35,950 nucleotides of DNA from a virus, in the IMG/VR virus record IMGVR_UViG_3300018481_000047, positions 1-35,950 of that record; one strand, written 5' to 3'. A program made the position numbers and the translations under genes. Every line of letters starts with the position of its first letter. Position 1 is the first letter of the stretch. This document shows, one piece after another, positions 11,636-12,661 of this stretch. The notes below the pieces were generated by a model that made no database searches, was not told where the DNA came from, and saw only the letters and a program-made list of their open reading frames with translations.

Positions 11636-12661
11636 GTGAGCGGGGGGTTGTGGCTCCAGGTTGACGTTGATTTCTCGGATGACCCCCGCGTCATCGACGC
11701 GGCCGCGGAGCTGGGCGTCGACCCCGACTATTTGGCTGGGAAGATGCTCCGGGTCTGGGGCTTCACCCTGAAGCACGCGCCCAGCGGGGTCATCGAGAGC
11801 CGGAGCCCGGCGGAGATCGTCGAGATGGCCGCCCGCTGGCCCACCGAAAGGCGCGGCGAACTGGTGGCCGCCCTGCATGCCGTTGGGCTTATTCACGTGG
11901 CCAAAACGCGCGCAGAGATGCGCGGATGGGTCGAGCGCTACGGTCGCCTCGTGGTGGTCCGCGAGAAGGCCAAAACAAAGAAGCGCCGGCAAAGACTGAA
12001 GAAATCCTCAGAACGTCCCCAGGGACGTCCCCCCATGCGTCCCGGGGACGTCCCCCAAATGTCCCCGGGGGAGAGTAGAGGAGAGGAAACATATAGAGAT
12101 CCGGCGGACGGACGGACGGAGAGCCGTTCAGGACCAGCCCCAGAGCCTTCAGTCCGTCCGTCCGTCCGTCCCCCCATGGCACCCTCTGCCGAGATTGAGG
12201 GGCTCTGGGCCGCGCTTTCGGCCGCGGGCGGCGCAAAGGCCGGAAGGCGCCCGCCAGACCTCGCGGAGCTCTGGGCGCTGGTGAAGGGCTCCCCCACCAT
12301 CCCGCGAGCCGTAGCGGCCTACGTGCGGGCCCTGAAGCAGACCGGGGAAGGAAGCCTGCGCAACAAGTCCGTCGACAACTTCCTCCGCACCGCGGCGTGG
12401 CGCATCGAAGCGGAGCCCGAGTTCATGCCGGAACCAGACCCGGAACCGCTCCCGGCCTGTGAGCTGTGCGACGAGATTGCCTCCGGCTTCGGCCCTGGCT
12501 ACTGGGTCCGATTCGACTCCTACGGGCACCGCCTGTGTAAGCGCTGCTTCGACGCGAAGCCCGCCAGCGTCGAGACCGTCGATGCGATGTCTGTCTGGGT
12601 GGCGTCGCGCCGACGCGAGCTCAGCACCCCAATTCTCCCAGCCCTCGAGGTGGTCCGATGA
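11636..12661 (+). CDS. Putative replication initiator with internal origin-like repeats (341 aa)
   Basis: GTG 11636 is chosen because the preceding 114 codons of the open frame look random, while GLWLQVDVDFSDDPRVIDAA starts a recognisable phage replication-protein N-terminus. Residues 5-100 read as a winged-helix-type domain, with LAGKMLRVWGFTLKHAPSG and LVAALHAVGLIHVAK. A basic stretch (EKAKTKKRRQRLKK) follows, then a Pro/Arg/Gly linker (about residues 124-180) encoded by the repeat array. The C-terminal domain ends with CELCDEIASGF...RLCKRCFD, a zinc ribbon. The layout resembles lambda O, whose gene also contains the origin. It is the first gene of the plus-strand replication operon and overlaps the next start (ATGA). 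Helicase or helicase-loader genes are not recognised nearby, so host helicase recruitment is inferred. Confidence 0.6.
   Translation: MSGGLWLQVDVDFSDDPRVIDAAAELGVDPDYLAGKMLRVWGFTLKHAPSGVIESRSPAEIVEMAARWPTERRGELVAALHAVGLIHVAKTRAEMRGWVERYGRLVVVREKAKTKKRRQRLKKSSERPQGRPPMRPGDVPQMSPGESRGEETYRDPADGRTESRSGPAPEPSVRPSVRPPMAPSAEIEGLWAALSAAGGAKAGRRPPDLAELWALVKGSPTIPRAVAAYVRALKQTGEGSLRNKSVDNFLRTAAWRIEAEPEFMPEPDPEPLPACELCDEIASGFGPGYWVRFDSYGHRLCKRCFDAKPASVETVDAMSVWVASRRRELSTPILPALEVVR
12013..12170. other. Candidate replication origin inside the initiator gene
   Basis: GTCCC occurs in direct orientation at 12015, 12027, 12039, 12050 and 12061, a spacing of 12, 12, 11 and 11 bases. An AT-rich stretch follows (12087-12100, 11 of 14 bases A or T) in otherwise GC-rich DNA. 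Then come four GGAC units (12105-12120) and four inverted GTCC units (12153-12168). Iterons next to an AT-rich unwinding tract inside the initiator gene are the classical lambda-type origin plan. Confidence 0.55.
12105..12168. repeat. 16-bp perfect inverted repeat of a tetranucleotide
   Basis: CGGACGGACGGACGGA (12105-12120) and its exact reverse complement (12153-12168) surround a 32-base loop. The arms are (GGAC)4 and (GTCC)4 microsatellite runs encoding parts of the initiator linker (SVRPSVRPP). They can form a strong cruciform or RNA hairpin and are prone to slippage. Confidence 0.85.

What the first reader, a model, noticed from the sequence alone, without database searches (positions are those of the whole stretch)
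12013..12170. Origin-like iteron array inside the replication initiator gene
Seen: five GTCCC direct repeats at 11-12 bp spacing (12015, 12027, 12039, 12050, 12061), an AT-rich tract at 12087-12100 and a (GGAC)4/(GTCC)4 inverted pair, all in the linker of a winged-helix-type protein. Known: lambda places iterons and an AT-rich tract in the middle of gene O. Inference: the linker is shaped by DNA function, since its protein sequence is low-complexity Pro/Arg/Gly. The one-turn spacing is shorter than lambda's, so binding would be continuous along one DNA face.
Basis: partly seen in the sequence, partly recalled or inferred. Interest (0 to 1): 0.75.

Follow-up and report, generated by a model that had tools for sequence, protein, structure and literature searches.

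The report
Phage replication origin inside initiator gene
This phage very probably starts copying its DNA inside the gene for its own replication starter protein, at a cluster of binding-site repeats beside an easily opened purine-rich stretch; the general plan is known from phage lambda, and the same two-part signature turned up here in many phage starter genes of several protein families.

Summary
They use all three reading frames and exceed every one of 20,000 synonymous recodings. Relatives with 20-27% identical N-domains carry different repeats at the same place, mostly followed by the same kind of tract, (AGAGA)n with 5-nt period. One 18-mer of that tract, scanned blindly through viral contigs, falls mostly in replication-initiator genes; 70 of 90 testable proteins match this initiator's own family. 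A scan for GTCCC pairs plus tract found 35 loci, against 2 for a scrambled core. Best reading: a lambda-style origin inside the initiator gene, with the N-terminal winged helix binding the repeats and the tract as opening site. The window also has lambda's third part, an inverted repeat. Corrections: the repeats read better as 2.5 units of 22-24 bp, close to lambda's spacing; GC-skew extremes do not point here. Origin activity and binding are untested. A new member of a known kind; I found no description of the cross-family tract.

The parts
11636..12661 (+). Replication initiator gene (GTG start assumed; 341 aa)
   Evidence: phrog_9474 'replication initiation protein' E 4.2e-19, phrog_2509 E 2.4e-6; no convincing Pfam family
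11636..12010 (+). N-terminal winged-helix domain plus long helix (residues 1-125), predicted DNA-binding domain
   Evidence: AlphaFold2 block pLDDT about 76-96 apart from the first 10 residues; VIA-align Z 5.8-6.4 to five RepA_N-type initiator N-domain structures 5kbj, 4pql, 4pt7, 4pta, 4ro3
12011..12188 (+). Disordered linker (residues 126-184) whose DNA holds the putative origin
   Evidence: no secondary structure, low pLDDT falling to about 41
12015..12072 (.). Iteron array: GTCCC at 12015, 12027, 12039, 12050, 12061 and inverted GGGAC at 12022, 12045; about 2.5 units of 22-24 bp
   Evidence: synonymous-codon null 0 of 20,000; three reading frames
12067..12099 (+). Purine tract GGGGGAGAGTAGAGGAGAGGAAACATATAGAGA, GC-rich form of the (AGAGA)n tract of relatives; proposed opening site
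   Evidence: purine run 38 of 20,000; codon rarity 1 of 20,000; conserved beside iterons in relatives
12087..12099 (.). AT-rich end of the purine tract (AAACATATAGAGA)
12103..12174 (.). Inverted repeat, arms 12103-12120 (GGAC repeats) and 12152-12174 (GTCC repeats); accessory element
   Evidence: folding z -4.3 for the 80 nt after the tract; lambda has an inverted repeat at the same place (sequence)

Best explanation
It is the phage's theta-type replication origin, placed inside its initiator gene. Inferred steps: the initiator's N-terminal winged-helix domain binds the GTCCC/GGGAC half-sites as paired units; the assembled complex melts the adjacent purine/AT-rich tract; one exposed strand of the tract recruits the host replicative helicase directly or through a loader; the long inverted repeat downstream is an accessory part. 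Shown here: the repeats, the tract, DNA-level constraint on both, their fixed order in distant relatives, the initiator family and predicted fold. Not shown: binding, melting, origin activity.
For: Gene is a phrog_9474 replication initiation protein. The array cannot be a by-product of the linker peptide: 0 of 20,000 recodings, three frames. Tract written in codons used 3-12% of the time (AGT, AGA, GGA, GAA, ACA, TAT, GAT), 1 of 20,000. Distant relatives have other repeats (GTAACG at 12 bp, GTCAC, CGCCGGACGACC) at the same place, most followed by an AGAGAAGAGAAGA-type tract. In 107 of 123 relatives of the Xanthomonas CP2 initiator, CGTTACC abuts TARAGAAGA or AGAGAAGA. GTCCC pair plus tract: 35 viral loci against 2 for a scrambled core; 10 of 10 representatives chosen from them are initiators or DnaD-like loaders; neither control hit looks like one. 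Blind scan with AGAGAAGAGAAGAGAAGA: 105 non-redundant loci, 70 of 90 testable proteins match phrog_9474; 78 of 100 have 3 or more copies of a 6-mer in the 92 nt upstream, mean 3.48 against 1.98 in control windows, 39 different cores. Fold resembles RepA_N initiators; in pSK41 of that family the binding sites also lie inside the rep gene (PMC5703833).
Against: GC-skew extremes lie at 4.5 and 32.9 kb, not at 12 kb. The tract is only about 60% AT over 30 bp and other spots in the window are more AT-rich (13.9, 5.2, 4.0 kb). The window's own 5-nt period is weak (lag-5 match 0.50; lag 2 is higher at 0.61, lag 10 is 0.52). No close relative with the same protein was found. One of the six phage relatives (Paenibacillus phage Harrison, L003) has no clear AGAGA tract. 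A downstream hairpin is not a general feature of relatives. Fold Z of 6 is tied with unrelated winged-helix proteins.
Confidence: 0.86

Rival explanations
1. The repeats are initiator-binding sites that regulate the gene or copy number (autorepression, handcuffing), while replication starts elsewhere.
For: GC skew does not point to 12 kb; iterons of known plasmids also serve copy control (general knowledge).
Against: The recurrent pairing of iterons with a codon-constrained purine tract on the 3' side in several initiator families is what an opening site needs and has no clear role in repression; no second array of this repeat in the window.
Confidence: 0.08
2. Low-complexity Pro/Arg/Gly linker and GC-rich composition produce the repeats by chance or by selection on the peptide.
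For: The genome is about 68% GC and the linker is disordered.
Against: 0 of 20,000 synonymous recodings reach the count; GTCCC sits in three frames, so the peptide is not what repeats; rare codons are used.
Confidence: 0.02
3. Only for the tetranucleotide arrays at 12103-12174: they are a slippage (phase-variation-like) or transcript hairpin element, unrelated to the origin.
For: 4-bp units in a coding frame would shift the frame on slippage (inference); relatives show hairpins here only sometimes (29% with z under -1.5, against 10% at +150 nt and 24% at -400 nt).
Against: Lambda has an inverted repeat at the same position after its A-rich tract, and several relatives have perfect hairpins there made of other sequences.
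Confidence: 0.3

Closest known systems
Phage lambda ori inside gene O
   Same: Initiator gene carries iterons, then a purine/A-rich tract, then an inverted repeat, in this order on the coding strand; half-sites contain TCCC/GGGA; iteron spacing 20-24 bp (PMC7466680). Lambda O also binds single-stranded DNA of its AT-rich region (PMC7466680).
   Different: No sequence membership in O-like PHROGs or Phage_rep_O; lambda iterons are 18 bp with half-sites about 7 bp apart, and its tract is A-rich with TTATT, not AGAGG-like.
pSK41-type RepA_N plasmid origin (Rep boxes within rep)
   Same: DnaD-like N-domain of about 120 residues binds repeats in the centre of its own gene; the linker encoded by the origin is dispensable (PMC5703833); fold match to 4pt7, 4pta, 4pql, 5kbj.
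   Different: No RepA_N sequence match; no AGAGA tract is described for pSK41 in the passages read; phage, not plasmid.
SPP1 oriL inside gene 38
   Same: Direct repeats plus AT-rich opening region inside the initiator gene (PMC6316719).
   Different: SPP1 has a second origin (oriR) and its own loader and helicase; none of these was seen here among the genes scanned.
P1 oriL inside repL
   Same: Origin lies within the initiator coding sequence, supported by synonymous substitutions in an AT-rich region (PMC9948254).
   Different: No iterons are mentioned in that paper's main text.
DnaA-trio and DnaD recognition element of bacterial oriC
   Same: A short, strand-asymmetric motif array next to initiator boxes, read as single strand (PMC10201434).
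   Different: Dominant period is 5, not 3, across relatives; initiator is not DnaA; functional equivalence is inference only.

Membership tests
phrog_9474 replication initiation proteins | profile match of the protein | tested here: met
   E 4.2e-19 over residues 6-163
Origin embedded in the initiator gene (lambda-type layout) | iterons inside the initiator coding sequence | tested here: met
Origin embedded in the initiator gene (lambda-type layout) | A-rich or AT-rich tract directly 3' of the iterons | tested here: met
   purine tract 12067-12099, AT-rich at its end only
Origin embedded in the initiator gene (lambda-type layout) | initiator binds the iterons | not testable with these tools
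   winged-helix fold only
Origin embedded in the initiator gene (lambda-type layout) | replication starts there | not testable with these tools
   GC skew, an indirect sign, does not point there
Lambda O protein family (Phage_rep_O, O-like PHROGs) | sequence profile match | tested here: not met
   no such match at E up to 1
RepA_N initiators | sequence profile match | tested here: not met
   not among Pfam matches up to E 1
RepA_N initiators | N-domain fold | tested here: inconclusive
   Z 5.8-6.4 to five RepA_N-type N-domain structures over nearly the whole domain, tied with other winged-helix proteins
DnaA-trio element | trinucleotide period in the opening tract | tested here: not met
   dominant period is 5 in 72 non-redundant tracts (lag 5 z 22; lag 3 z 6.5)

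The most novel reading that the evidence does not exclude
The 5-nt purine tract is a general single-strand recognition element of phage origins, a phage counterpart of the DnaA-trio or DnaD recognition element. It would be kept across many initiator families while the iterons beside it change freely, so that the tract alone locates origins in thousands of unannotated phages. The window would then be a GC-rich variant (AGAGG instead of AGAGA).
Probability: 0.4. Interest if true: 0.75.

Novelty: new member of a known kind. Interest (0 to 1): 0.52.

Why it matters
Origins of most phages are unmapped. Here a DNA signature (variable iterons plus a constant 5-nt purine tract, read from inside the initiator gene) picked out replication initiators from viral contigs with no protein information. 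If the tract is the opening or helicase-entry site, origins can be predicted from sequence, and a clean experiment with synonymous mutations can test it in any cultured relative such as Xanthomonas phage CP2. It also offers an explanation for the recurring REEKRREEK-like stretch in phage replication proteins: DNA signal written into protein.

Tried and rejected
A scan for three GTCCC at 12 bp mostly returned proteins with 4-residue repeats (WDSV/RDAA types) and few initiators; rejected as a family probe. The search with alignment A1 failed for lack of conserved stretches. No PDB sequence relative of the initiator profile. Foldseek against PDB gave nothing below E 0.001. The idea that a hairpin after the tract is universal was tested and not supported: 29% against 10% at +150 nt and 24% at -400 nt. 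The trio idea (3-nt period) was rejected in favour of 5. A first codon-null script timed out. The tract of the window itself as a scan pattern found only 3 loci, one of them (L288) a protein of initiator-like layout without any PHROG match. A text search for the tract sequence found no phage paper on it. PMC7924643 (a Francisella phage paper holding both 'replisome organizer' and 'iteron') was listed but not read.

Full report
WHAT IS THERE. The window is a circular phage record of 35,832 bp with a 118-bp end repeat, about 68% GC. The ORF from GTG 11636 to 12661 matches phrog_9474, replication initiation protein, E 4.2e-19. Next to it on the other strand lie a RecT-like annealing protein and an exonuclease. 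Two inverted copies, GGGAC at 12022 and 12045, were not mentioned. Together they form GTCCCcaGGGAC, then GTCCC, then GTCCCgGGGAC, then GTCCC, then GTCCCcggggGA: about 2.5 units of 22-24 bp.

IS IT MORE THAN CHANCE. Keeping the peptide and drawing codons from the phage's own genes, no recoding of 20,000 reached five forward copies or seven on both strands. The copies lie in frames 1, 1, 1, 0 and 2, so the peptide is not what repeats. Directly after the last repeat comes a purine tract, 12067-12099, the purine-richest stretch of the + strand. Its codons (AGT, AGA, GGA, GAA, ACA, TAT, AGA, GAT) are each used 3-12% of the time in this phage; 1 of 20,000 recodings is as unusual. The predicted structure has a winged helix and long helix up to residue 125, no structure from 126 to about 184, then small helical elements. 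The DNA features sit in the disordered part.

WHAT RELATIVES SHOW. tblastn against phages gave only distant relatives, N-domains about 20-27% identical. Their linkers carry different repeats at the same place: GTAACG at 12-bp spacing (Manatee Spring phage, Xanthomonas CP2 and Olaya), GTCAC (Paenibacillus Harrison), CGCCGGACGACC (nd4). Except in Harrison, an AGAGAAGAGAAGA-like tract follows. A wider set of CP2-type initiators from Pseudomonas, Akkermansia, Planctomycetes and viral contigs commonly has the order TAACG, TAACG, CGTTA, CGTTACC, tract; 107 of 123 have CGTTACC directly joined to TARAGAAGA or AGAGAAGA, two joints one base apart. TAACG and CGTTA are used in more than one reading frame. 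In 72 non-redundant tracts the strongest self-match is at lag 5 (z 22) and lag 10 (z 17).

BLIND TESTS. (1) Pattern GTCCC-gap-GTCCC-gap-GAGNAGAGNAGA, no protein information: 35 viral loci; the same pattern with CTGCC: 2 loci. All ten representatives that I chose from the 35 hits for a family scan are initiators or DnaD-like loaders (phrog_9474/2509, 2562, 3729, 186); neither control hit looks like one. Many of the 35 are near-copies of one another, so the number of independent cases is smaller. L253 (GTCCCGGGACTGTCCCGGGACAGTCCCGGCGAGAGGAGAGGAG) is nearly the window's design. Upstream of the tract, 78 of 100 have a 6-mer in 3 or more copies (mean 3.48, own control windows 1.98, Wilcoxon p 7e-17), with 39 different cores. 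So repeats vary and the tract stays.

HOW IT MOST LIKELY WORKS. Inference from anatomy and named precedents: the N-domain binds the half-sites, the complex opens the tract, and a helicase enters there. The N-domain model aligns best with a set that includes RepA_N-type initiator N-domains (4pql, 4pt7, 4pta, 5kbj, 4ro3; Z 5.8-6.4), though other winged-helix proteins tie; 4pt7, 4pta and 4ro3 are named as RepA_N structures in PMC7145576, the other two by their entry titles only. In the RepA_N plasmid pSK41 the N-domain binds four boxes in the middle of rep, and the linker encoded there is dispensable (PMC5703833). Lambda's own sequence shows iterons, then ACAAAAGAAAAAAGAAAAGATTATT, then GTCAGAG...CTCTGAC; the window has the same three parts in the same order, with (GGAC)4/(GTCC)5 as its inverted repeat (folding z -4.3).

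WHAT DOES NOT FIT. Cumulative GC skew has its minimum at 32.9 kb and maximum at 4.5 kb; in lambda the detrended minimum is near ori. The tract of the window is weaker in period than those of relatives. Hairpins after the tract are frequent but not general. No experiment on this phage was found.

KNOWN OR NEW. Origins inside initiator genes are established: lambda O (PMC7466680), SPP1 gene 38 (PMC6316719), pSK41 rep (PMC5703833), P1 repL (PMC9948254). The window is a new member of that kind, not a member by sequence of the lambda O or RepA_N families. What I could not find described in the papers searched (open-access library only) is the constant 5-nt purine tract beside variable iterons across initiator families. 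That is the more interesting lead, and the absence of a paper in this library is not proof that it is unknown.

Noticed in passing
window 12458-12547: The initiator's C-terminal part has a four-cysteine zinc-finger-like motif (CELC ... CKRC).
   Followed up: no
L002 1643-1662, L004 1642-1660, L006 1642-1660: CP2-type initiators carry a further GTAACG/CGTTAC palindrome inside the winged-helix coding region, about 200 bp upstream of the main array; possibly a second initiator site.
   Followed up: no
L023, L048, L085, L105 and others: Many viral contigs encode long arrays of 4-residue repeats (WDSV/RDSV, RDAA/WDAA types, some next to GYGQHDAxWIGFY) whose DNA mimics 12-bp GTCCC iterons; a trap for iteron searches and an uncharacterised repeat protein group.
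   Followed up: no
L251-L285, L359: Iteron cores with GTCCC recur in several initiator types (phrog_9474/2509, Lin1244_N, phrog_3729, phrog_186), suggesting shared ancestry or module exchange of origins between initiator families.
   Followed up: partly
L142 (1805-2710 gene), L162, L184, L198, just after the tract: Several relatives have perfect short-loop hairpins (loops such as TAAC, TTAC) directly after the purine tract.
   Followed up: partly
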